The position numbers and the translations under genes are program-made. From positions 52,954 to 116,953 of the forward strand of contig JAUILL010000010.1 in the NCBI GenBank assembly GCA_030433335.1: a stretch of 64,000 bases of DNA, given 5' to 3'. The notes beneath the pieces were generated by a model. The model saw only the letters and a list, made by a program, of their open reading frames with translations. It made no database searches and had not been told where the DNA came from. Below are positions 34,707 to 48,140 of this stretch, piece by piece; the stretch's first letter is position 1; the number at the start of each line of letters is the position of its first letter. Source of the DNA: Alphaproteobacteria bacterium. Lineage in GTDB: Bacteria; Pseudomonadota; Alphaproteobacteria; Rhodobacterales; Rhodobacteraceae.

Positions 34707-36077
34707 TTAGCCCAGAACTTTCGCCACAGCTTTGGCGGTTTTCTCGGCCACTTCGTCGGCTTCGGCCTGTGTCAGGCAGAACGGCGGCGCAAAGCCAAGG
34801 ATATCACCCTGCGGCATCGCGCGGCCAATCACGCCCTGCTCCAGCAAGGATGCTGCGACGCTGGGGCCAACCTTCTCGGACGCGTCAAAGAAAGTACGGC
34901 TGTCGCGGTCTGCCACGAACTCAATGGCGGCCATCATGCCTTCGCCGCGGATTTCGCCGACATTTGCATGCTCGGACAGAGCATTCCGCAGCGCCGCTTG
35001 GAAGTAGGCACCATTTTCGCCCGCCGCCTGAACGAGGTTCAGTTCGTCGATCAACTTCAGGTTGGCAACGCCCGCCGCCGCGCCGATGGGGTGCGCCGAA
35101 TAGGTCCAGCCGTGACCGATGGGGCCGTTTTCGTCGGTGCCCTGCTCCAGCACTTTCCACACCTTGTCGCTGACGATCGAGCCGGACAGCGGCGCATAGG
35201 CCGAAGTCAGGCCCTTGGCGATGGTGATCAGGTCAGGCTTCAGATCGTAGTGAAGCGAACCGAACATGCTGCCCAAACGACCGAAGCCAGTGACGACCTC
35301 GTCTGCGATCAGCAGGATGTCATGCTTCTGCAGGATCGGCTGGATCGCTTCCCAATAGCCTGCGGGCGGGGGCACGATGCCGCCTGTGCCCAGAACAGGC
35401 TCGCCGATAAAGGCCGCGATGGTGTCCGCGCCCTCGCGTTCGATCAGAGCTTCCAGCTCCGCAGCGCAATGGGCCACGAACTGCTCTTCGGTCATCGAGA
35501 CGTCGTCACGGCGGAAGTAGTACGGCGCCTCGGTGTGGATGACTTGGGTCAGCGGCAGGTCGAACTTCTTGTGGAAGAGCTCAAGGCCGGTCAGCGAGCC
35601 GGTCATCAGACCCGACCCGTGGTAGCCGCGCCAGCGCGAGATGATCTTCTTCTTTTCCGGGCGGCCAAGGATGTTGTTGTAGTACCAGACCAGCTTGATG
35701 TTGGTCTCGTTCGCATCCGAACCGGACATGCCGAAGTACACCTTGGACATGTGGTCTGGTGCGCGGTCCAGAACCATTTTCGCCAGAGTGATGCTGGCCT
35801 CGGTGCCGTGACCCACGTAGGAATGGTAATAGGCCAGTTCACGCGCCTGATCGGCGATCGCATCAGCGATATCGGTGCGGCCATAGCCCACGTTCACGCA
35901 GTAGAGGCCCGCGAAAGCGTCCAGCAGTTTGGTGCCGTCACGGTCCTCGATATGGCAGCCGGTCGCGGTTTTGATCACGCGCTGGGGTGCCTCGCCGCGG
36001 GCAAATTGGCCCAGATGGGTCGAGGGATGGAAGAAGTTCTCGCGATCCCACTGTTCGAGCATATCGTTTCTTAGCAT
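34707..36077 (-). CDS. Class III aminotransferase (DoeD-like, ectoine catabolism candidate)
   Basis: DGTKLLDAFAGLYCVNVGYG, ISRWRGYHGS, LLIADEVVTGFGRLGSMFGS, PDLITIAKGLTSAYAPLSG. Confidence 0.85.
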   Translation of the reverse strand: MLRNDMLEQWDRENFFHPSTHLGQFARGEAPQRVIKTATGCHIEDRDGTKLLDAFAGLYCVNVGYGRTDIADAIADQARELAYYHSYVGHGTEASITLAKMVLDRAPDHMSKVYFGMSGSDANETNIKLVWYYNNILGRPEKKKIISRWRGYHGSGLMTGSLTGLELFHKKFDLPLTQVIHTEAPYYFRRDDVSMTEEQFVAHCAAELEALIEREGADTIAAFIGEPVLGTGGIVPPPAGYWEAIQPILQKHDILLIADEVVTGFGRLGSMFGSLHYDLKPDLITIAKGLTSAYAPLSGSIVSDKVWKVLEQGTDENGPIGHGWTYSAHPIGAAAGVANLKLIDELNLVQAAGENGAYFQAALRNALSEHANVGEIRGEGMMAAIEFVADRDSRTFFDASEKVGPSVAASLLEQGVIGRAMPQGDILGFAPPFCLTQAEADEVAEKTAKAVAKVLG

Positions 36078-36090
36078 AGGTCCTCTCCTG

Positions 36091-37548
36091 TCAGCCCCAA
36101 TCGCGGCAGACGTATTTAATGTCAGTGAATGCTTCGAGGCCTTGGCGCGCACCTTCGCGTCCCAGACCGGATTGTTTGACCCCGCCAAAGGGGATCGGCG
36201 CGCCCGTCACCTTGGTCCGGTTGACCGCCACCATGCCGAATTGCAGGGCGCGGGTCAGACGGTAGATGCGGCGCGGGTCCAGACTGTGCACATAGGCGAC
36301 CAGTCCGTATTCTGTGGCATTGGCGCGCTGGATCACCTCTTCTTCGGTGTCAAAGGGGGTGACGGGCGCGACGGGGCCAAAGTTCTCTTCGCTCATAATC
36401 GCGGCCGTGTCGGGCACATCGGCCAGAACCGTCGGCTGAAAGAAGAGCGGGCCAAGGGTCTGATCGATATCGCCGCCAGTCAGGAGCTTGGCCCCATTTG
36501 CGAGCGCATCGGTGACCTGCTCGACCTGCTTCTGGATCGCCTTTTCGTTGATCAGAGGGCCGATGTCGGGGTCGTTCTGCCCTCTGTCCATGGTCAGCGC
36601 CTGAACGGCCTGCGTGAACCGCGCGCAGAATTCAGCGTAGACGCCCCGCTGCACGTAGATGCGGTTCGCACCAAGGCAATCTTGTCCCGAGGTCGCGAAT
36701 TTAGCTTTGACCGCTTCGGTCACGGCACGGTCCAGATCAGCGTCGTCAAAGACGATGAACGGCGCGTGGCCCCCAAGTTCCAACACCAGACGTTTCACCG
36801 TGTCGGCGGACTGGCGATAGAGCAGTTTGCCCACCTCGGTCGAGCCAGTGAACGACAGCGCCCGCACACGCGCATCGGCGGTCCACTCGCCCACGATGGT
36901 GGCGGCGTCCCCGACCACAGTGCTCATCACACCCTCGGGGAAGCCTGCGCGGCGGGCCAGTTCGGCCAGAGCCAGCGCCGAAAGCGGCGTTTCTGCAGAG
37001 GGATGGATGATGACCGTGCAGCCAGCGGCCAGAGCGGCGGCAGCTTTGCGTGTGATCATCGCGCTGGGGAAATTCCAAGGGGTGATCAGCGCCGCCACGC
37101 CCACGGGTTCCCGCCACAGCTCCATCTCTGCGTCAGGCAGATGGCTGGTGACGCCCTCGATGTTCGGGCGCAGGGCCTCTTCGGCGTAAAACCGGACAAA
37201 GCTGGCGGCGTAGTCAATCTCGCCCCGCGCTTCGCTGATCGGTTTGCCCTGCTCGGCAACCATGATCTGGGCCAGATCCTCTTTGGCATCGAGGATCAGG
37301 TCGTGCCAACGGTGCAGCAGGCTTGCACGGTCCTGAGGCAGCATGCCTGCCCAATCGGCAAAGGCCCCATCGGCGGCGTCCACGGCAGCGCGGGCCCCGG
37401 TGGCATCGCTCAGGGCCACCTGCGCCACCAGATCACCGGTGGCGGGGTCGCGGACGGCAAGCCGCCCCTGCCCTGCGAAATCTCCGTTCCCGCGCAGGAG
37501 GGCCGCGTCAGTGATCCATGGCGTCAAACGCTTCGACATCTCGATCAT
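36091..37548 (-). CDS. NAD(P)-dependent semialdehyde dehydrogenase (SSADH family; DoeC-like candidate)
   Basis: PWNFPSAMITRKAAAALAAGCTVIIHPS, VLELGGHAPFIVFDDADLD, ATSGQDCLGANRIYVQ. Confidence 0.88.
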   Translation of the reverse strand: MIEMSKRLTPWITDAALLRGNGDFAGQGRLAVRDPATGDLVAQVALSDATGARAAVDAADGAFADWAGMLPQDRASLLHRWHDLILDAKEDLAQIMVAEQGKPISEARGEIDYAASFVRFYAEEALRPNIEGVTSHLPDAEMELWREPVGVAALITPWNFPSAMITRKAAAALAAGCTVIIHPSAETPLSALALAELARRAGFPEGVMSTVVGDAATIVGEWTADARVRALSFTGSTEVGKLLYRQSADTVKRLVLELGGHAPFIVFDDADLDRAVTEAVKAKFATSGQDCLGANRIYVQRGVYAEFCARFTQAVQALTMDRGQNDPDIGPLINEKAIQKQVEQVTDALANGAKLLTGGDIDQTLGPLFFQPTVLADVPDTAAIMSEENFGPVAPVTPFDTEEEVIQRANATEYGLVAYVHSLDPRRIYRLTRALQFGMVAVNRTKVTGAPIPFGGVKQSGLGREGARQGLEAFTDIKYVCRDWG

Positions 37549-37663
37549 GGCTGTGGTCTCCTTTCACAGACACCCTAGCCCCGACCAAGCGGAGGTTTTC
37601 CCTGTTGTGGGTCGCCGCGCCAGAGAAGTTCTCTTTTCGCAGCTGTGATGGCAGAGACTTTCT

Positions 37664-38146
37664 CTAGACCCCGCGCAAGAGGCCCATGGCTGGCGGATCA
37701 GCCTTGATCGGCTTGGTCACGATATAGCTGTAGTAGCGGCGCACCCCTGCGCGGCTCTCCAGCAGACCATCCATAAGCTCTTGAAAAGTCGCCACATCTG
37801 TCGTGACCAGCTGCATCAGGTAGTCATATCCGCCGCCAATAGCCCAACAGCCCGTCACCGCATCCATCCGGCCCACGGTCCTTTCGAACAGCTGAAAACT
37901 CTCTGCTTTGTGGCTTTCCAGCTCGACCGTGACAAAGACCTGCACGTGGGGGCCCAACGCCTCTAAGTCGATCTCGGCGCGGTAGCCGCGGATCAGGCCT
38001 GCCTTTTCCAGTCGCTTCATCCGTTCCCAGCAAGGCGTCGGAGACAGGTTCACCCGCGCCGCCAATTCGGTCTTGGCGATCCGACCCTCTCGGCTCAGGG
38101 TGGCAAGAATGGCGATATCACGGTCATCAAGGCGGGTGCAATCCAT
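37664..38146 (-). CDS. Lrp/AsnC family regulator (DoeX-like candidate)
   Basis: LDDRDIAILATLSREGRIAKTELAARVNLSPTPCWERMKRLEKAGLIRGY; start at MDCTRLDD. Confidence 0.9.
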   Translation of the reverse strand: MDCTRLDDRDIAILATLSREGRIAKTELAARVNLSPTPCWERMKRLEKAGLIRGYRAEIDLEALGPHVQVFVTVELESHKAESFQLFERTVGRMDAVTGCWAIGGGYDYLMQLVTTDVATFQELMDGLLESRAGVRRYYSYIVTKPIKADPPAMGLLRGV

Positions 38147-38433
38147 GCAGAGGTTGTTCCGCGAGGCGCAAGGATTTGTCAATCCAAGAGATAATCTGTC
38201 CTGTCGTGTGGGGTAACAGCGAAATTTCATCTCCCCCACTTGCCGAGCGTCCAAACCGTTGACAGGATCGCCCCATCGCATGACCGGCGGACCGATTTGG
38301 TCCCGACCGAGACCAAGAGGCACCGTTGCCCCGCGCAGGCAAGGCCACCTTGGGACACCTCTGGCGCGATGCCGCCGTTCTGTCTTTGGCCCCGCCAAAG
38401 CGCAGATCGGCACGACTGGAATGAAAGGCCCAC

Positions 38434-39630
38434 ATGAACAAACTGCAACGAACACCAGAGCGGTACACCACCGAGGAATACCGCGCGCGGCTGGTCAAAA
38501 TCCGCGCCAAGATGGAAAAGCAAGGGCTCGACATGCTGATTATCAGCGACCCTTCGAACATGTCTTGGGTGTCTGGCTACGGCGGCTGGTCCTTTTACGT
38601 GCACCAATGCGTTGTCGTCGGGCCCACGGGCGATCCGGTATGGTTCGGGCGCTCTCAGGACGCCCAAGGCGCCTATCGCACAGTCTGGGTCGGCCGCGAC
38701 AACGTCATCGGCTATCCTGACCATTACGTGCAGTCGACGGAAATCCACCCGATGGAATACTTGTGCGACCGCCTGACCGACATGGGCTGGGACAAAGGCA
38801 TCATCGGCGTTGAGATGGACAACTACTGGTTCTCGGCCCGTGCCTTTGAGCGTCTGCAAAACGGCCTGCCTAACGCGAAGTTCAAGGACGCGACCGGCTT
38901 CATCAATTGGGAGCGCGCGGTCAAATCCGAGAAAGAGCTGGAATACATGCGCCAAGCCGCCCGCATCGTCGAGCGGATGCATCACCGCATCGCGGACAAG
39001 ATCGAGGTTGGCGTGCGCAAGTGCGATCTGGTGGCGGAAATCTATGACGCGGGTCTGCGCTATGACGAGTGGTACGGCCACGGCGGCGACTACCCCGCCA
39101 TCGTGCCCCTGCTGCCGTCGGGTCCTGACGCCGCCGCCCCGCACCTGACGTGGGACGACCTGCCGATGAAAGAGAACGAAGGCACGTTCTTTGAGATCGC
39201 GGGCTGCTATCAGCGCTACCACGTGCCTCTGTCGCGGACGATTTTCCTTGGCAAACCGCCGCAGGAAATTCTGGACGCGGAAAAGGCCGTTCTCGAAGGC
39301 ATGGATGCGGGCCTAGAGGCCGCGCGGGCGGGCAACACCTGTCATGACATCGCAGATGCGTTCTTTAAGTCCTTGGAAAAGCGCGGGATCGTCAAAGACA
39401 ACCGCTGCGGTTACTCCATCGGTCTGAGCTACCCGCCCGATTGGGGCGAACGCACCATGTCCCTGCGCCGCGGCGACATGACCGAATTGCAGCCGGGGAT
39501 GACCTTCCACTTCATGACCGGCCTCTGGATGGAAACGTGGGGCTACGAAACCACGGAATCTATCGCCATCACTGACGGCGCGCCCGAAGTCTTTTGTGAC
39601 ATGCCCCGTAAGATGCTGGTCAAGAACTGA
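38434..39630 (+). CDS. doeA: Ectoine hydrolase-like M24 family protein
   Basis: ERYTTEEYRARLVKIRAKMEKQGLDMLIISDPSNMSWVSGYGGWSFYVHQCVVV...; metallopeptidase M24 fold; neighbouring aminotransferase/SSADH/AsnC. Confidence 0.85.
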   Translation: MNKLQRTPERYTTEEYRARLVKIRAKMEKQGLDMLIISDPSNMSWVSGYGGWSFYVHQCVVVGPTGDPVWFGRSQDAQGAYRTVWVGRDNVIGYPDHYVQSTEIHPMEYLCDRLTDMGWDKGIIGVEMDNYWFSARAFERLQNGLPNAKFKDATGFINWERAVKSEKELEYMRQAARIVERMHHRIADKIEVGVRKCDLVAEIYDAGLRYDEWYGHGGDYPAIVPLLPSGPDAAAPHLTWDDLPMKENEGTFFEIAGCYQRYHVPLSRTIFLGKPPQEILDAEKAVLEGMDAGLEAARAGNTCHDIADAFFKSLEKRGIVKDNRCGYSIGLSYPPDWGERTMSLRRGDMTELQPGMTFHFMTGLWMETWGYETTESIAITDGAPEVFCDMPRKMLVKN

Positions 39631-39638
39631 TCTCGCTC

Positions 39639-39664
39639 GGAGTAGCGGGCAGTCCCGCTACTCC
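39639..39664. terminator. Perfect hairpin between convergent doeA and the protease operon
   Basis: GGAGTAGCGGG-CAGT-CCCGCTACTCC, 11-bp perfect stem, followed by GTTTCG on +. Confidence 0.65.
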
Positions 39665-40767
39665 GTTTCGTCCTGAGGGCCAGTGTTCAGCCAGTCGGCG
39701 ATCAGATCAACGTGGACAGCCCGATTGCTGTCCCAGGCGTCACCGTCCTGAAATCCGAAATGGTGCAGCCCCACAAGCCGCCCTTGCCTGTCAAACACAG
39801 GCGCACCGGACGACCCGCCAGAGGTGTCGCAGGTGTGGGTGAAATCGGTCGCATCCCCCCGCCCCGCGACGCGTATCTCGCCTGCAGCGCAATCCAGTAC
39901 AGAGATTTGCTTGGGCTGCGATCCGGGGTGCTGCACGACGACAATCGGCATCTCTGGCTCTGTGTCCGTGGGCAGGATTTCGACCTGCCCGTAAACGTCA
40001 TCCATCGGCCGATCCAGCGACACAACGCTGACATCCAGCGCTTCGTTAATCCGTAGGGTTTCCACCCCTGCACAACTGGCCTGCGCCCCGATCCCAAGCC
40101 GACCATTCTGATCATATTCGTAGCCAAACACCGCCGTCATGCTCGCGCAGGTTTCCTGATCACGGATGCAATGCTCGTTTGTCATCAACTGGTCCGGTTC
40201 GATCAGAAAACCTGAACAGGTCCGTGCAAAGCCCCCCTCGACAAACGAGAGCAAAGCTACCGGAGGGCCAAGGGCCTGAAGTTCTGCGGGCACCTCTGGG
40301 TTGTTGATCGGCGTGAGTTGGTTCTCGCCATAGGTGGAATAGCGGGCCAGTTTGGTGCTCTGGATCGCAATGCTTTCGATCACCAAGGCGCCAGTGTCGG
40401 GCAGCGTGCTGTCCGAAACCAAAGCAAGCCGCGCCCGACCGAATGGCAAAAGCGGAGTCCATTGGCCGGCTTCTGGAAGGGTCGCCAACCCGATCTCAAG
40501 GCTCTGATCCATGGCCCCGAAAATCACCAAACGCGCATCATCGGGAAAAGGGGCGCCTTCGGTCCGCAGCAGCAACCGGATGTAGTCAGCGCCTGCCAGA
40601 CTGATCTCGTCGAACCAGACGGAGCCGCGATCGCCCAACCACTGGCTTTTGTCGATCCAGATGTTCCGATCTTCAATCCGCCCATCCACGAATGCCTCCA
40701 GCACCGGTGCTTCCTGCGCTATCGCCGCGCCTGCTGCACACAAAAAGAGAGCCCAGAGCCGCCTCAT
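39658..40767 (-). CDS. Secreted trypsin-like serine protease (S1 family) with N-terminal accessory domain
   Basis: Signal peptide MRRLWALFLCAAGAAIAQE; LMTNEHCIRD, LDVSVVSLD, CDTSGGSSGAPVFD catalytic triad motifs. Confidence 0.85.
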   Translation of the reverse strand: MRRLWALFLCAAGAAIAQEAPVLEAFVDGRIEDRNIWIDKSQWLGDRGSVWFDEISLAGADYIRLLLRTEGAPFPDDARLVIFGAMDQSLEIGLATLPEAGQWTPLLPFGRARLALVSDSTLPDTGALVIESIAIQSTKLARYSTYGENQLTPINNPEVPAELQALGPPVALLSFVEGGFARTCSGFLIEPDQLMTNEHCIRDQETCASMTAVFGYEYDQNGRLGIGAQASCAGVETLRINEALDVSVVSLDRPMDDVYGQVEILPTDTEPEMPIVVVQHPGSQPKQISVLDCAAGEIRVAGRGDATDFTHTCDTSGGSSGAPVFDRQGRLVGLHHFGFQDGDAWDSNRAVHVDLIADWLNTGPQDETE

Positions 40768-42944
40768 TCGTCGAACAGCGGTGAGGTGTAGTCGCGGATA
40801 TCACGGAAGGCGAAGGTGACCTCCTCGGGGCGGTCCTCTGCGTCCCGTGTCAGGACCGTGATTTTCGCCGAGAGTGTTCGCACCAAACAAGACGGGTCGC
40901 GTTCAAGTGGGCCATAGCGCCCGCCCAACTCGCCGCCTGTGTGTTTGAAGATGAAATGCCGTTTTTTGGCGTCGTTCCAGCCGAGCCTGCGGACGTTGTA
41001 CCAGTTCTGGTAGCCTTGGTCCTCATGGGGGCTCTTGCAGACGAAGCCAGCGGGGGCCTCGATCACCTGCCCTGTGATAGTCCGCCCGTCAAACAGTTCA
41101 AACTGCGCCTCGTGCAGATGGATCGCCCGCGACACATTCAGCCGCCCGTCCCGCAAGGCCCCCGCCAACTGAGGGAAGAAATCCGCCGTATAGCTGAGCC
41201 GGTCCTTGACGATCTTTGGCGAGAGTTGTCCCCCGCCCTCGCCCAGTTCGTCGCCATAAATGAATTCGCCAGACGCAAAGATCAAAGAGGCGACCGCCGA
41301 CACCTGCGGCGCGGCGAAAGAGGTACCCTTTTGCACAGCGAAACGGTTGCCCGTGACCGTGGTCAGTATGTTCACCGCGGGTGCGCCAATGTCAAAACGC
41401 GGATTGCGGTTGGAACCAGCGGTCTGGCTGCTCCAGACATTCTGGCCATCCAATCCGACCACGGTGATCACGTTGTCCAGATCGTTCAAACAGGCGGGCA
41501 GGATTGGGCAGTTTTCCTTGGTCATGTCGCGGTTTTCATTGCCCGCAGCGGCAACGATCAGCATGCGGCTGCCGTGGATGGCCAAAGCGGCTCTGACCTC
41601 TTCGCGCCCAGTGAATTCTGGCTGCATTCCGAAGCTCAGGTTCGCGACCCGCGCGTCCTTTGGGATGCCGATCAAGAGTTGCTGGATTAACGCGAAAATC
41701 CCTTGGTCCGCAGGAACATTCTGATCCAGCCCCAACATCCAGAGACGCGCATGTGGATTGATCCCAAGCGTCCCACGCTGGTTGGCAGGCGCGGCAATTA
41801 CCCCTGCCACGGCCGCCGCATGATCTGCATCCGACAACGCCGCAGGATTGAGTTGATCGCAGGTTTCCTCTGCGCCCATTTCAGCGCGGGGAAGAACCTC
41901 TCCCTCCGGCGTCAAGAGATCGGGCAGATCGCAATGACCCATCGACAGTGGCGCATCAATCACGACGATATCCACAGGGCGCTGGAAGCTGGGGCCCAGA
42001 TCCTCGCGTTTGGCAAAAGGATGGTGGATCACCTCGAACAGATCGATCTGCTCTTCCATCAAGGGCTCGTCCCCTGCCCATTTCAGATCGACAGACCCGA
42101 GCGGGCGCAGGTTATTGCGCACGCCTTGCAAGGTCAGATCAGCGGGCGACTGCTTCAACAGGTTCGAGTTCCAACTCGGCGAAAAGTTGGAGGCTGGCGC
42201 AAAGGTCTTTTCCGTCGTTTTCGGCGCGACAGTCTCTGCGCTTGGCGCATCCTGCTCTTCACGCAGCTTCATCAAACTGCTCAGAAGTTCAGAGGACTCG
42301 TCCGGCTGGAGCCATAAATTCGTCTCGTACTGCTGGCGGGGAATGGTGATCGTTGTCCCCGCACTCAAGGACTTCAAAAGGCGCGGGTTGAAAGTGGCTA
42401 CGACCTCTTCACAGCTCATCTTCCATGCAGAACAATCAAGGCCGGGCTCGGGCACGTAGCTCGTGACACTCCATCCTTCGGGGGCGGGAATGCGGACCAA
42501 GGTGGTGACAGGGCGGAAGGAATAGTCAGGGATTTTCACACGGTCCCCCGCACTCAGCCGCCAGTTTCCGCGACTTGGGGCAAACCCGCCGACATGCCCT
42601 ACGGGGTTCGACAACTGCCGATCCGATACAGGTGTGCGCGTCCGCCGACACAGGCCAGGATTGATGTCGCACATCATCGCATCAAGGGATTCCGGAAAAT
42701 ACGCCCCGTGCATCACGCCTTGGTTCCGGAGCAGAACTTCGACAAAAGCGGGCGTGCCAATGACCTCTTCGCGCAGGGTCAGGTTGCCCGAGTTATAGAG
42801 CGTCAGAAAGAGTTGCTCGATCTCGATCGCCAGGGCAGCGTCGTTGTTTGCGCGCGACCGCCAGACCACCGCGGTTTCTGGCACCATCGCAGGCGCGGCA
42901 CCAGCCAGCGCGAGGAAAAGAACAAGCGCGGATTTCAGTCCCAT
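40764..42944 (-). CDS. Secreted subtilisin-like serine protease (S8) with long N-terminal region
   Basis: Signal peptide MGLKSALVLFLALAGAAPAM; VVIDAPL (Asp), DADHAAAVAGVI (His), GTSFAAPQVSAVASLIF (Ser). Confidence 0.85.
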   Translation of the reverse strand: MGLKSALVLFLALAGAAPAMVPETAVVWRSRANNDAALAIEIEQLFLTLYNSGNLTLREEVIGTPAFVEVLLRNQGVMHGAYFPESLDAMMCDINPGLCRRTRTPVSDRQLSNPVGHVGGFAPSRGNWRLSAGDRVKIPDYSFRPVTTLVRIPAPEGWSVTSYVPEPGLDCSAWKMSCEEVVATFNPRLLKSLSAGTTITIPRQQYETNLWLQPDESSELLSSLMKLREEQDAPSAETVAPKTTEKTFAPASNFSPSWNSNLLKQSPADLTLQGVRNNLRPLGSVDLKWAGDEPLMEEQIDLFEVIHHPFAKREDLGPSFQRPVDIVVIDAPLSMGHCDLPDLLTPEGEVLPRAEMGAEETCDQLNPAALSDADHAAAVAGVIAAPANQRGTLGINPHARLWMLGLDQNVPADQGIFALIQQLLIGIPKDARVANLSFGMQPEFTGREEVRAALAIHGSRMLIVAAAGNENRDMTKENCPILPACLNDLDNVITVVGLDGQNVWSSQTAGSNRNPRFDIGAPAVNILTTVTGNRFAVQKGTSFAAPQVSAVASLIFASGEFIYGDELGEGGGQLSPKIVKDRLSYTADFFPQLAGALRDGRLNVSRAIHLHEAQFELFDGRTITGQVIEAPAGFVCKSPHEDQGYQNWYNVRRLGWNDAKKRHFIFKHTGGELGGRYGPLERDPSCLVRTLSAKITVLTRDAEDRPEEVTFAFRDIRDYTSPLFDE

Positions 42945-42970
42945 GACGTTTCCTTTCTCTGCCGGGCCAC

Positions 42971-44191
42971 TCAGGGTTGCGGCGTGTCAATCACCACATT
43001 GAATGTCGCGGCCTCGTAGCCATGCACCGCGACCGAAACGAGCGTTTTGCCTTCTGGCACATCGAATTCGCAGACTTCGTCCGCGCCCGTATTGTAGGGG
43101 CGGCAATCGTAGCTAGAGACCAACGCGGCCCCGTCGAACTTCACGTAGAGATCAGGATCACCGGTGCCTGTCATTTCTGCCCGAAAGGGTTCTCCTGCCA
43201 TGACGGGGCCCTGCCAGACCATCTGAAGCGCGCCTTGTGCAAGATCGAAAGGCCCGAAATCCTGCAGGCTCGAGACCTGATTTGGCGGCGTACAGACAGT
43301 CGGGTCGATTTGGAACCCCGCAGCCGGACCATAGAGGCATGCGACACCGCTTTTGTCCTGATCCGTGAGCGTCAAAGACCAGTCTCCACGCCCGTTGCAC
43401 TGAGGGTAATGCATCACCGAGAACGCATCGTAGTCCGTCACGCCGCGCCAATCGCTGTCCTCGAAACAGGCCCCCGCATCAGGGCGGGTGTGTTCATGGC
43501 GTCCGCCGATTACATGCCCCAACTCGTGCCGCAGCACGCCGCGCAATGTCAGATTGTCATTAGGATCAAGCGCAAAGGACGAGGGATCGATCACAACGCT
43601 TCGGTCACTTCGGGGATCATTTGGGAAAAAGGCAGCGGCCAGAAAATCCCCGCCTGCATCCACAGGCCTGACGTCAAACAGCACATTGCTGTTGGTTTGC
43701 GTGCAATTGCCGTCCTCTGCGGGCAGGTGGGTGAAATCCAGATCGGCCACGGCCTCCCACGAGGCCGCCGCCGCCAGCATGTCTCCGACAACCAGCGGGT
43801 GGCGCGGGCCAAATTCAGTGCTGACGCAGAAGGTCAGGGCTTTCCGCGTCCCCGCATCCCAAATCTGGTCTAGACCGCCGACATGGATCACCGTGAATTC
43901 CGGCACCGGACCATCGCTGGGTTCTGGCAGAGCACGAACATTCTGCATCCAGAACTCGCGCAACAGTTTCTCGTTGCGGATAGGCGTGTCCCCGTTGACG
44001 TAGAATTTGCCCGTTTCCGGCAGGTAGAGGGTCTGGTCCTTGAAGCTTGCGAAGTCCATCGTGGCACGGGACTCCCGCGCAGCGTCTGCCAGTTCCCCGA
44101 GCGCCGCTTGTCCTTCCTCTGGGCTTAGGGATTGCGCGCCGACCGGTCCGGCGAGTATGGCCAAAAGAAGTGCAGTCGCATGGGATTTCAT
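42971..44191 (-). CDS. Secreted zinc metalloprotease (astacin/matrixin-like metzincin) with C-terminal PPC-like domain
   Basis: Signal peptide; HELGHVIGGRHEHTRPD (HExxHxxGxxHExxRxD) plus Met-turn SVMHYP; C-terminal DPDLYVKFDGAALVSSYDCRPY. Confidence 0.87.
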   Translation of the reverse strand: MKSHATALLLAILAGPVGAQSLSPEEGQAALGELADAARESRATMDFASFKDQTLYLPETGKFYVNGDTPIRNEKLLREFWMQNVRALPEPSDGPVPEFTVIHVGGLDQIWDAGTRKALTFCVSTEFGPRHPLVVGDMLAAAASWEAVADLDFTHLPAEDGNCTQTNSNVLFDVRPVDAGGDFLAAAFFPNDPRSDRSVVIDPSSFALDPNDNLTLRGVLRHELGHVIGGRHEHTRPDAGACFEDSDWRGVTDYDAFSVMHYPQCNGRGDWSLTLTDQDKSGVACLYGPAAGFQIDPTVCTPPNQVSSLQDFGPFDLAQGALQMVWQGPVMAGEPFRAEMTGTGDPDLYVKFDGAALVSSYDCRPYNTGADEVCEFDVPEGKTLVSVAVHGYEAATFNVVIDTPQP

Positions 44192-44221
44192 GTCTCTCTT
44201 CCTTTTGATGGCGGGAATGGA

Positions 44222-45886
44222 TCAGGTGAATACCGACTTGTACACAGGGTGATCGGCATAGACCTTTTGCAGCCTGCCTCGGGGCGGACCCGGATGATCA
44301 AGCCCAAGGTATCGCGCCGCATTTCCCCCCATGACCCGCTGTGTTTGCGTGTCTGTCAGGGAGAGTTGCTCAAGAACGCCCAGAACTTGGGCAAGGTATT
44401 CTGGATGGGAGGGTTCTTTGCCGATCATGGACCAGTCAGATCCGTACATCATCCGGTTGACCATCTCTGGATGGCGCTCAAGCAGATCAGAGGTCAGCGT
44501 CAACACCCGCTCTTGCGAGGCAGCATCTCCTTCGGCCACTTCGTTCCAATAGCCGAGGTCGAAATAGACGTTGGGAAACTCCTCGACCATCTCGACCAGC
44601 GTCTCTTCCCAATTGCCACCAGAGGTGAAGGCGCGCGTGGTGTCGGTCTCGTCGAAACCACCAAAATGCGCAAGGTTCAGGCGCAGATCGCTAAAGCGCT
44701 TGTCCCGCATCAAAACTTGCCAACCCGCCGGATCAGCAAAGCGCCCGGTATCGGGGCCAGCAGCAATGGAATTGGTCGCGTGGGCCTTGATCGCGACCTC
44801 GTTCTCGACACACCAGACGAACAGGTCGTCCAACTCGCGGTCCAGCGCCGCGCCGCCTTTGACAGGTTTGCGCGGTACCCAGCTTAGATCGCTGTCGTTG
44901 TCGACGGGCCGAAAACCCATGGGCGGGTAGAGTTTCACCCCCAGAAAACCGCGTTCCAGCACAGCGTGTTTGACATTGCGCAGCGGATCAATGTCCGGGT
45001 CGTCCTCTCGCTCGAGCGCCGCACGCAGCGGACAAAACGGAGCAAAGGGCAGGATCAGTGCACCCTCATAGACCTGAGCGATCCGCGCGACCACTTCGAT
45101 CTGGTCTTCGACCGGCGTCACGCTCTCTTCGGTAAAGAACCAAGCAGTGAAATCCACGAGCGAAGGCGAGAATATCCTGATCCCCCCTTCCTGGCCGTAC
45201 AGCCTGTCCAACTCGGCCAGAATATCCAGCCGACTGCGCGTTAGCAGACCGGCCCAGCGAATGGTTTGCATCAGCGACGAGCGGTGAACGTACTCCCGTT
45301 CTTGCCCTGCGGTCAGCGATTTGGCCTCTGTGCTAGTGTCTTTGGCGTAGATGCGAGAGGCCAGCGAAGTGGTCTGCGCCCGCTGGGTCTGAAGTCCTTT
45401 GCGCATGGGGGTTGCGCCAACCTCGGCGGCGATCCGGTCCAGAATAGCCTCTTCGGCAGACCGAGAGGTGCGCAGGCCTGCCGTTGACTGGCCCGCCGAG
45501 CGCGAGAAGCGTTCTAGCGCCTCTGCGACTTTGGCCTCATCCTGTGCCTCGACCGCAGCGGGGGACATCGGCGCCGCCCCGTTTTCCAGCGTTGCCAGTT
45601 CTTCGGCGGCTGTCGGAGTTTTGGCCAGCAGGATCGCTTTGAGCAGTTTCAGAAAGGCGTCCGACCGCATTTGCGGGTCCACGGGCGCATGGGCATCCCG
45701 AAGCTGGGTCTGCTGCAAAAAGCCGACGATAGGCACATCGCGGCCGTTAAAGAAATGCGCGTGGATGTCGATGGCAGTGCGCGACACCTCGGGCTGGAAG
45801 AAACGTCTCCACTGACCGCAACCAGACAGAGCCATTGCTGAAATCGACCCCATGAGCGCGGTCAACAGAGTGCGTCGTGTGACCAT
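44222..45886 (-). CDS. Lipoprotein amidohydrolase (amidohydrolase_2-like)
   Basis: N-term MVTRRTLLTALMGSISAMALSGCG lipobox; IDIHAHFF (HxH), IKAHATNS, LNLAHFGG, MYGSDW. Confidence 0.8.
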   Translation of the reverse strand: MVTRRTLLTALMGSISAMALSGCGQWRRFFQPEVSRTAIDIHAHFFNGRDVPIVGFLQQTQLRDAHAPVDPQMRSDAFLKLLKAILLAKTPTAAEELATLENGAAPMSPAAVEAQDEAKVAEALERFSRSAGQSTAGLRTSRSAEEAILDRIAAEVGATPMRKGLQTQRAQTTSLASRIYAKDTSTEAKSLTAGQEREYVHRSSLMQTIRWAGLLTRSRLDILAELDRLYGQEGGIRIFSPSLVDFTAWFFTEESVTPVEDQIEVVARIAQVYEGALILPFAPFCPLRAALEREDDPDIDPLRNVKHAVLERGFLGVKLYPPMGFRPVDNDSDLSWVPRKPVKGGAALDRELDDLFVWCVENEVAIKAHATNSIAAGPDTGRFADPAGWQVLMRDKRFSDLRLNLAHFGGFDETDTTRAFTSGGNWEETLVEMVEEFPNVYFDLGYWNEVAEGDAASQERVLTLTSDLLERHPEMVNRMMYGSDWSMIGKEPSHPEYLAQVLGVLEQLSLTDTQTQRVMGGNAARYLGLDHPGPPRGRLQKVYADHPVYKSVFT

Positions 45887-45955
45887 CTGATCTCCTTCGG
45901 ATCAGGTGAATAAGGGAGGCCGGCACCGATGGCGGACGGTGCCGGCCCACGGCGG

Positions 45956-47761
45956 TCAACCCTCTAGGACCAAAGCGAATTTCATCCACTTTTCCAAAGA
46001 GTTGACCGGCGTTCCGTCGGGCATGCGCAGCGGACTGTGCGCAGGCTCGAAATCGGTAGACAGAGCGGAGTCCGGATCAGACAGGAGCGTTCCGACAAAG
46101 GTGCTCGCGACAATCCAGCTGCCGACTTCGCCCAGGTGATCGCCCCCCGCAGCCTCGGCTTCTGCCAGCAGATAGAACCAGAGCGGAGTCCGTTCATGCA
46201 GCTTGGCCTCACTGCACCGCATGAAGTCAGAAAGTTCCGGCTTATTATCCAGCACGGCGCTCACATCGCTGATCGGGTCCGAGGTGACAGCGCCGATCGC
46301 CTTGAGATGCGCGTGCAGCGCCTGCCCTGTGGGCAAACGCAGGCTCAACCCCCGCCGCAAATTGCGTTTGGCCAGATGCTTGAACAAGGCTTTGACGTCC
46401 GCATTCGTCTCTTCGTTGGCCTCGTTCGACATGCTGCCCAAGGGCGGCGCGATCATGGTGTCGATCCGGCGCGCGACCCGCGCAGGACCGCCATCCGTCG
46501 TATCCCCGTCCGCCGTCAGGAACCGCGTCCAGTCGATGATCCAGTTGTCCGGCAGCGTCGGTGCGCCCGCAAATTGTCCCTTGCCCGTGAATAGGAACAT
46601 CAACTGGAAAGGTGCCGTGCCCGTGGGCCGCCCGAAGATACGGTTGTAGTCATAGATATCCCGCACCATCGAATGGCCAAACCGGTAGGCCGCCACCGAA
46701 AATTCCAGCGGGATCGCATCGCCGAGCGTCTTCTCGGCTTTGCGGGCGTCGGTGCCATAGTAGTCCCGTCGGAAGTCAAAGAAGTGCTTGGCTTTGTCCG
46801 AGAGCACGCGCTCTAGAACGGTCTGGTCGCACATCCCCTTGAGGTAACCATTCACGATCAGCCATTGGTAGTGCAGTTTGGTTAGGGCCTGCGCAGAATG
46901 GAAATCCGCAATCCAGCCGGTGTCATTGGCCTCTAGGAAATCCACGGTGCGATTGTGAAACCGCAAGAAGCTGACGTGGAACTGCGCCACAATCAGGTTT
47001 TCGTCATTGCGCATGTCACCGATCAAAGCTCGCCTGTCCAGATCGGCCTCGAACGCGGCACGCCCCTCTGCCCCCATGCGGGATTCAATGATCGACAGAA
47101 AGGCCTCTTTGACCTCGGGCTCGACCTGACCAAAACGCGGCAGATCGCGCACTTCGTCCAGACCGTCGGGCCGCTGCGCGCCCCCATCCACCAAAGTACA
47201 GGTCCCGACCCGCATCTTCGCAGGCATCGCGGGGTGGCGCATACCATTGATGACCTTCGCGACATTGGCTTTGGTCGCGTCGTCCGCCGCATTCTCGAGC
47301 CCGATCGGGAAGCCGCCATAGACGCTATCCAGATCGAACCGCGGGCTCCGCGCGTTCTTGAGGTCGTTTTCTATCTCTTCCGCGGTCTTAATCGGCGTAG
47401 GCGCGTCGATCTTGGAAATCTCGGTCTCTCGATCCGTCCGAGCGGTCAGTTCGTGGTCCAGAAACTGCCCCCAATAGGTCATGACAGCCGGCATGCCAGA
47501 GTCCGGCTGCGGCAAGCCTGTGCCTTCGACCTCCTCAAGGACCATCTTCTCGCCCAGAGTGTCCAACTCGGCCAAAGCATCGTCCGAAATAAAATCTACT
47601 GGTGACGCGGATGTGTAAGGGAAAATGAACCCGAAATCCGCGGCTTCGTCGACGGCGATGTCGCCCGAGTCTGGAACCAGGGCTTCTCGCCTCAGTGCCG
47701 TTTTCGTTTTGGTGATTTGTTGTCGATCGTTCCCGCTGTGGGACTGGAAAAATAGCGCCAT
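45956..47761 (-). CDS. Animal-type heme peroxidase family protein
   Basis: TYWGQFLDHELTARTD, VAQFHVSFLRFHNRTVDFL, YQWLIVNGYL, EFSVAAYRFGHSMVRDIYDYN; start at MALFFQSHSG. Confidence 0.88.
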   Translation of the reverse strand: MALFFQSHSGNDRQQITKTKTALRREALVPDSGDIAVDEAADFGFIFPYTSASPVDFISDDALAELDTLGEKMVLEEVEGTGLPQPDSGMPAVMTYWGQFLDHELTARTDRETEISKIDAPTPIKTAEEIENDLKNARSPRFDLDSVYGGFPIGLENAADDATKANVAKVINGMRHPAMPAKMRVGTCTLVDGGAQRPDGLDEVRDLPRFGQVEPEVKEAFLSIIESRMGAEGRAAFEADLDRRALIGDMRNDENLIVAQFHVSFLRFHNRTVDFLEANDTGWIADFHSAQALTKLHYQWLIVNGYLKGMCDQTVLERVLSDKAKHFFDFRRDYYGTDARKAEKTLGDAIPLEFSVAAYRFGHSMVRDIYDYNRIFGRPTGTAPFQLMFLFTGKGQFAGAPTLPDNWIIDWTRFLTADGDTTDGGPARVARRIDTMIAPPLGSMSNEANEETNADVKALFKHLAKRNLRRGLSLRLPTGQALHAHLKAIGAVTSDPISDVSAVLDNKPELSDFMRCSEAKLHERTPLWFYLLAEAEAAGGDHLGEVGSWIVASTFVGTLLSDPDSALSTDFEPAHSPLRMPDGTPVNSLEKWMKFALVLEG

Positions 47762-48140
47762 AGCTCTACTCCTGGCTGCAACAAAACTAAACTTTCTACG
47801 GTACTTGAGCAATTTATAGCATGACGATCTGTTTCTACGTACAACTTTAACGAAAGTGCAGTCGCAAAAAACCCTGAAATAACTAGGGGATTTTGATTTA
47901 TTTCGGCATCCCAACCAGTTATTGCCTACAACTTTTTCAAGAATTTTAACCGATGACCCCGAGTGTGCCGCTCATCAGCCGTGTTCACGCAGGTGTGTTC
48001 TGTGTGTCAGCCCGATCCGGCAGCGGAGCGCAGGAATGGAATCCTAACTGTCGGAGCGGAAAAGGAATCAAAACCTAATGGCCTTGCGCATCAGCGAAGG
48101 CTTTGGGTTTGCTCAATTTGATAGTTTTAGGTCGTCTATC

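What the first reader, a model, noticed from the sequence alone, without database searches (positions are those of the whole stretch)
39658..47761. Candidate undescribed system: trypsin + subtilisin + astacin-like protease + lipoprotein amidohydrolase + animal heme peroxidase operon
Five tightly packed minus-strand genes (gaps of about -4 to 70 bp) encode three mechanistically distinct proteases, each with a signal peptide, a lipobox amidohydrolase and a peroxidase of the animal heme family. I know of no described system with this composition. Possible functions: a proteolytic activation cascade controlling an extracellular peroxidase, a secreted oxidative/antimicrobial weapon, or matrix/polymer remodelling. 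No transporter or immunity gene is apparent.
Basis: partly seen in the sequence, partly recalled or inferred. Interest (0 to 1): 0.8.

Follow-up and report, generated by a model that had tools for sequence, protein, structure and literature searches.

The report
Mobile secreted-protease cassette with optional peroxidase
A rare block of genes in marine Rhodobacteraceae, apparently passed on as a unit, encodes three different exported proteases and a membrane-anchored hydrolase, sometimes with a relative of our white-cell peroxidase; it is real, conserved and, as far as I could find, undescribed, but what it attacks or processes is unknown.

Summary
In detail: five packed minus-strand genes with intact catalytic motifs. 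The unit itself is different. The conserved core is four genes, AMH-AST-SUB-TRY: a Tat lipoprotein amidohydrolase, an astacin/matrixin-like metalloprotease, a subtilase, and a V8-like ("trypsin") protease. This order holds in six intact loci of different Rhodobacteraceae genera, always with a 4-bp SUB/TRY overlap, in unlike surroundings. AMH and AST occur in the same genomes (8 and 7 of 397). The peroxidase precedes AMH in only four loci, where it is monophyletic, and is absent genome-wide from five other cassette genomes. It has no export signal, so the proposed protease-activated extracellular peroxidase is unlikely. Yet the link is not chance: relatives of this peroxidase sit beside subtilase, trypsin-like, papain-like, lipase and NucA-trypsin genes in 26 of 42 loci, versus 0 of 50 in a sister clade. 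Best reading: a proteolytic relay acting outside the cytoplasm, with an optional peroxidase from a lineage that repeatedly partners peptidase clusters. No paper I found describes either.

The parts
45956..47761 (-). POX: animal-type haem peroxidase (peroxidase-cyclooxygenase superfamily), 601 aa, no signal peptide, disordered N-terminus starting with a conserved MxLFFQSHGG-like motif; optional member
   Evidence: Pfam An_peroxidase 3e-14; AF2 pLDDT 87, pTM 0.90 with residues 1-38 under 50; Foldseek best match Cyanobacterium TDX16 peroxidase 8s6c, then myelo- and lactoperoxidase; Q99, D102, H103, R251, E254, H363 and N467 invariant in 46 relatives
47769..47773 (-). ribosome-binding-site-like AGGAG of POX
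   Evidence: read directly from the sequence
44222..45886 (-). AMH: Tat lipoprotein amidohydrolase (Amidohydro_2), core member
   Evidence: Pfam 9.3e-18; twin Arg plus lipobox in all 8 orthologues; invariant R4R5, G22C23, H42xH44, K318, H369, H407, D484
42971..44191 (-). AST: metzincin protease, signal peptide, conserved prosegment with VxGD, HELGHxxGxRHEH site, SVMHYP Met-turn, C-terminal PPC domain; core member
   Evidence: Pfam Matrixin, Astacin and PPC; invariant columns in 7 orthologues; PDB relatives tolloid-like 1, BMP1 and MMPs
40764..42944 (-). SUB: subtilase, signal peptide, about 300 aa N-terminal region of no known family, conserved C-terminal tail DYTSPLFD; core member
   Evidence: Pfam S8 4.9e-22; PDB subtilisins; alignment; N-terminal region without a family
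39658..40767 (-). TRY: V8/glutamyl-endopeptidase-like serine protease, signal peptide, about 150 aa N-terminal domain of no known family; overlaps SUB by 4 bp; core member
   Evidence: Trypsin_2 5.9e-19; PDB glutamyl endopeptidase 1p3c 4e-8; 4-bp overlap in all six intact loci

Best explanation
A horizontally spread, co-inherited Rhodobacteraceae cassette that exports three protease precursors plus an outer-membrane-type Tat lipoprotein amidohydrolase, working as a proteolytic relay in the periplasm or outside the cell. Inferred steps: SUB, TRY and AST leave by Sec and AMH by Tat; SUB matures itself; SUB and/or TRY remove the prosegment of AST (an aspartate-switch-like TGKxYVNGDxxIRNEKLLREF stretch), and SUB removes the N-terminal domain of TRY; the mature subtilisin-type, Glu-type and metzincin cuts together act on one class of extracellular or envelope protein; AMH hydrolyses a small amide or lactone connected with that process. 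POX is an optional, probably cytoplasmic H2O2-using enzyme that joined in front of AMH, from a peroxidase lineage that repeatedly sits in peptidase/lipase/nuclease clusters. Shown: composition, catalytic residues, export signals, conserved order and overlap, co-occurrence, optional POX. Inferred: the relay and its order, localisation, the roles of AMH and POX, the target.
For: Same order in window, L036, L056 (with POX) and L140, L142, L143 (without). SUB-TRY overlap is -4 bp in all six. AMH in 8/397 and AST in 7/397 sampled family genomes, all seven shared; hypergeometric chance about 3e-14, ignoring phylogeny (my arithmetic). The four proteins' distance matrices correlate (r 0.58-0.94, exact Mantel 1 to 35 of 720) and the AMH and TRY trees agree. 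Surroundings differ from locus to locus, and the sampled same-genus genome G039 lacks the cassette. Signals. AST prosegment columns T60 G61 K62 V65 G67 D68 and I71 to F80 invariant. TRY nearest to glutamyl endopeptidases. POX optional, monophyletic in cassettes (SH-aLRT 95); its relatives lie near proteases in 26/42 loci.
Against: No biochemical or transcript data. The zymogen relay is inferred from motifs and family behaviour; the prosegment could be removed by autolysis. L143 has Glu where the catalytic Asp of SUB is expected, so SUB may be weaker there. The AMH substrate is unknown and its model failed (pLDDT 35). One locus (L144) is decayed, so the cassette is dispensable.
Confidence: 0.42

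Rival explanations
1. Nutritional protease set: the three exported proteases simply degrade extracellular protein (algal or animal detritus) for amino acids, with AMH trimming a product; there is no activation order and no special target.
For: Three endoproteases of different class, all exported; PPC domains occur on secreted proteases, and the PPC of AST matches a solved metalloprotease PPC domain (2luw); the named hosts are Rhodobacteraceae, largely a marine group.
Against: No peptide or amino-acid transporter, exopeptidase or regulator is conserved next to the cassette; the rarity (about 2% of sampled genera), strict order and a lipoprotein amidohydrolase are unusual for a scavenging set.
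Confidence: 0.3
2. Conflict or defence cassette: an exported proteolytic cascade aimed at competitors, predators or phage, an extracytoplasmic cousin of the peptidase-cascade systems of Kaur et al. 2020; the peroxidase adds an oxidative effector.
For: Relatives of POX lie near trypsin-NucA(-subtilase) fusions (L058, L040), matching 'System 3' of PMC7159879, and beside lipase-trypsin, papain-like and PAP2 proteins; patchy spread and one decayed copy.
Against: The window cassette has no nuclease, STAND or EAD module found; its proteases are exported, unlike the mostly signal-less partners of the other POX relatives; PADLOC finds only generic protease matches; no immunity gene.
Confidence: 0.2
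3. One reading: the proteases activate or control an extracellular peroxidase.
For: POX is directly upstream at 34-88 bp in four loci and has the complete active site of myeloperoxidase-type enzymes.
Against: POX has no signal peptide, and only 1 of 96 relatives has a comparably hydrophobic N-terminus; five cassette genomes have no POX at all.
Confidence: 0.06

Closest known systems
Kaur et al. 2020 'System 3', NucA-trypsin(-subtilisin) conflict systems of alphaproteobacteria (PMC7159879)
   Same: Multiple peptidases (trypsin-like plus subtilisin) in one operon and a proposed proteolytic cascade; two POX relatives (L058, L040) lie near genes with this domain set.
   Different: The window cassette has no NucA nuclease, and no EAD or STAND module was found; its proteases are exported; it adds a metzincin, a Tat lipoprotein amidohydrolase and sometimes a peroxidase. 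The words 'peroxidase' and 'BTAD' do not occur in that paper.
Staphylococcal proteolytic cascade (aureolysin - V8/SspA - staphopain B) and Bacillus Bpr-Mpr activation (from my own knowledge)
   Same: Secreted proteases of different classes, one V8-like, activating each other as zymogens.
   Different: No thermolysin or staphopain here; a metzincin and a subtilase instead; all encoded in one fixed-order operon with a lipoprotein amidohydrolase; activation not shown.
Bacterial peroxidase-cyclooxygenase superfamily members (peroxicins, peroxidockerins; PMC4420034) and Cyanobacterium TDX16 peroxidase 8s6c
   Same: Fold and active-site residues.
   Different: No hemolysin-type repeat family found in POX, no signal peptide, and a genomic linkage to peptidases that I did not find reported.
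Nuclease-protease pairs in antiviral immunity (PMC12799240)
   Same: A trypsin-like protease paired with a second enzyme.
   Different: That partner is an MBL-type nuclease with demonstrated defence; no such partner here.

Membership tests
Peroxidase-cyclooxygenase superfamily (POX) | distal Gln/His, catalytic Arg, proximal His/Asn, Asp and Glu that can esterify haem | tested here: met
   Q99, D102, H103, R251, E254, H363 and N467 invariant in 46 sequences; fold match to 8s6c, MPO and LPO. Residue roles assigned from my knowledge of myeloperoxidase
Secreted animal-type peroxidase | signal peptide or RTX-type export signal | tested here: not met
   hydropathy of the N-terminus; start codon with RBS; no calcium-repeat family in Pfam
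V8/glutamyl endopeptidase (TRY) | S1-fold triad and closest sequence similarity to GSEs | tested here: met
   His in NEHC, Asp in LDxSV, Ser in GGSSG (alignment); best PDB hits 1p3c, SplE and other GSEs
V8/glutamyl endopeptidase (TRY) | cleavage after Glu | not testable with these tools
   CDT..GGSSG and GxHHFGF are conserved, compatible with Thr190/His213 of GSEs; inference only
Astacin M12A (AST) | HExxHxxGxxHE zinc site and Met-turn | tested here: met
   HELGHxxGxRHEH and SVMHYP invariant in 7
Astacin M12A (AST) | family-level match above the Pfam cut-off | tested here: inconclusive
   Astacin 20.9 bits against cut-off 22.5; Matrixin 28.8 over 24: a metzincin, M12A or M10 undecided
Subtilase S8 (SUB) | Asp-His-Ser triad | tested here: met
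   VID, ADHAA and GTSFAAP conserved, except Asp to Glu in L143; Pfam S8
Amidohydro_2 lipoprotein (AMH) | HxH, Lys, two His and Asp metal-site residues; Tat plus lipobox | tested here: met
   H42/H44, K318, H369, H407, D484, RR and GC invariant
Kaur 2020 System 3 | NucA (Endonuclease_NS) nuclease with trypsin-like peptidase | tested here: not met
   no Endonuclease_NS in the five proteins
Known anti-phage system | system-level model match | tested here: not met
   PADLOC gives only generic trypsin/subtilase matches
Zymogen cascade | one protease matures another | not testable with these tools
   conserved prosegment of AST and N-terminal domains only

The most novel reading that the evidence does not exclude
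The animal-type haem peroxidase lineage seen here is the hub of an undescribed class of alphaproteobacterial peptidase-cascade conflict systems (subtilase, lipase-trypsin, papain-lipase, SGNH-trypsin, NucA-trypsin, PAP2/haloperoxidase-like and BTAD-like-TPR partners), and the window cassette is an exported branch in which proteolysis and H2O2 chemistry together kill or defend.
Probability: 0.15. Interest if true: 0.85.

Novelty: new variant of a known kind. Interest (0 to 1): 0.56.

Why it matters
If the relay is real, this is a compact bacterial operon in which three mechanistically different exported proteases and a lipoprotein hydrolase are inherited as one unit, easy to test by deletion and purification. 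Separately, relatives of myeloperoxidase-type enzymes in bacteria have almost no known physiology; their repeated linkage to protease, lipase and nuclease clusters gives a testable context for them.

Tried and rejected
LysM-like repeats in the SUB N-terminus: suspected by eye, no Pfam match even at E 10. AMH structure from two sequences: failed (pLDDT 35), not used. Viral contigs: no POX. Own-genus genome G039 as an empty-site comparison: too divergent, flank gene only 57% and the other flank absent. RNA families in the window: none. Promoter/terminator scan: no more sites than shuffles. Literature: no paper found on such a cassette or on peroxidase-peptidase clusters. AMH relative in R. etli p42a beside a ubiquitin-like/TIR/caspase locus: not repeated in a second plasmid, so not used.

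Full report
Observation. Pfam: TRY Trypsin_2, SUB Peptidase_S8, AST Matrixin/Astacin plus PPC, AMH Amidohydro_2, POX An_peroxidase. NCBIfam gives no equivalog over its cut-off; PADLOC only generic protease matches. POX starts at ATG 47761 behind AGGAG, so the longer TTG frame is not needed.

The proteins. TRY is closest among solved proteins to glutamyl endopeptidases (1p3c, SplE, V8), with conserved catalytic residues, HTCDTxGGSSG and GxHHFGF (L143 has a small deviation, AKGTSG). SUB matches subtilisins; its first 300 residues have no known family, and its tail DYTSPLFD is kept in all six complete orthologues. AST has HELGHxxGxRHEH, the Met-turn SVMHYP and a strongly conserved prosegment TGKxYVNGDxxIRNEKLLREF, which I read by analogy with the astacin aspartate switch (own knowledge). 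Its C-terminal PPC resembles 2luw. AMH has twin arginine plus lipobox in all 8 orthologues and an invariant metal-site set; it has no solved relative by sequence. POX folds with confidence (pLDDT 87, pTM 0.90), matches 8s6c, myeloperoxidase and lactoperoxidase, and keeps the active-site residues in 46 relatives. Its first 38 residues are disordered in the model but begin with a conserved MxLFFQSHGG-like motif and carry no signal peptide.

The conserved unit. Searching relatives showed the full five-gene block in Pseudooceanicola atlanticus (L056) and G055 (L036), and POX plus a truncated AMH near a contig end in Tropicimonas (L037/L057). Searching with AMH (397 family genomes) added L140, L142, L143 (intact, no POX), L141 (contig end) and L144 (decayed, with stops). 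AST, searched separately, occurs in seven genomes, all of them AMH genomes. The five POX-less cassette genomes have no POX anywhere at E 0.001. Order is constant, and SUB and TRY overlap by 4 bp in all six intact loci. Protein distances correlate among the four genes, while flanking genes differ. Thus a four-gene cassette is inherited together and moves between contexts. Cassette POX genes are one clade (SH-aLRT 95, quick tree), so POX probably joined once and was lost in some lines; this order of events is inference.

Beyond the family, AMH relatives at about 30% identity exist without the proteases. The cassette itself was seen only in the window's own family; the class-wide sample was 385 genomes.

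The wider peroxidase lineage. Neighbours of POX relatives recur as families: a regulator with TPRs and, in one case, a weak Trans_reg_C match; PAP2 proteins with simple-repeat N-termini; 690-780 aa subtilases; lipase-trypsin, papain-like and SGNH-trypsin proteins. Protease ORFs lie within 5 kb of POX in 26 of 42 loci of the two upper clades and in 0 of 50 of the third. Caveat: the HMMs were built from neighbours of the first two clades, so the contrast is biased to some degree, and many loci are close relatives; the Fisher value of 3e-12 overstates the independence. Two loci (L058, L040) carry trypsin-Endonuclease_NS proteins (L058 also with a subtilase domain), as in 'System 3' of Kaur et al. 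(PMC7159879). These partners mostly lack signal peptides, unlike the window's proteases.

Mechanism. I propose a proteolytic relay of exported precursors with an outer-membrane-type amidohydrolase, and POX as an optional cytoplasmic partner. Composition, motifs, signals, order and co-occurrence are shown; maturation order, location, AMH chemistry and target are inferred. A nutrition reading (0.3) and a conflict reading (0.2) remain open.

Novelty. No paper found describes the cassette or the peroxidase-peptidase linkage; only open-licence PMC was searched. The parts are of known kinds and secreted protease cascades are known, so I rate it a new variant of a known kind.

Noticed in passing
L066 5015-14401; also L071, L072, L074, L077, L079, L083: Recurrent cluster around clade A/B peroxidases: BTAD-like/TPR regulator, PAP2 protein, large subtilase, POX, and in some lipase-trypsin; apparently undescribed.
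   Followed up: partly
L066 6701-7819, L072 15868-17073, L074 6272-7435, L046 2166-3287, L048 13251-14513: PAP2/vanadium-haloperoxidase-like proteins whose N-termini are simple repeats differing per genome (GFG, GAT, QG, GRS, GNA).
   Followed up: no
L058 11933-15724 and L040 3550-5616: Trypsin-Endonuclease_NS(-subtilase) fusion proteins near a haem peroxidase, like Kaur 2020 System 3.
   Followed up: partly
L045 7110-9242: SGNH-like plus trypsin protein next to POX matches the PADLOC 'nacht' model at 5e-28 over its trypsin half.
   Followed up: no
L144 9175-14260: Decayed copy of the cassette: AMH, SUB and TRY broken by stops or frameshifts.
   Followed up: partly
L162 6106-13410: Distant Tat-lipoprotein amidohydrolase in Rhizobium etli p42a beside a ubiquitin-like, E2, JAB, TIR and caspase gene set; not repeated in pRetIE4771a.
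   Followed up: partly
L065 3007-7260: Large SMC-like ATPase resembling Wadjet JetC (by eye) near a peroxidase in Granulosicoccus.
   Followed up: no
window 34707-39630: Class III aminotransferase, aldehyde dehydrogenase, Lrp-type regulator and M24 creatinase-like gene; looks like an ectoine-degradation cluster (domains, identity from memory).
   Followed up: no
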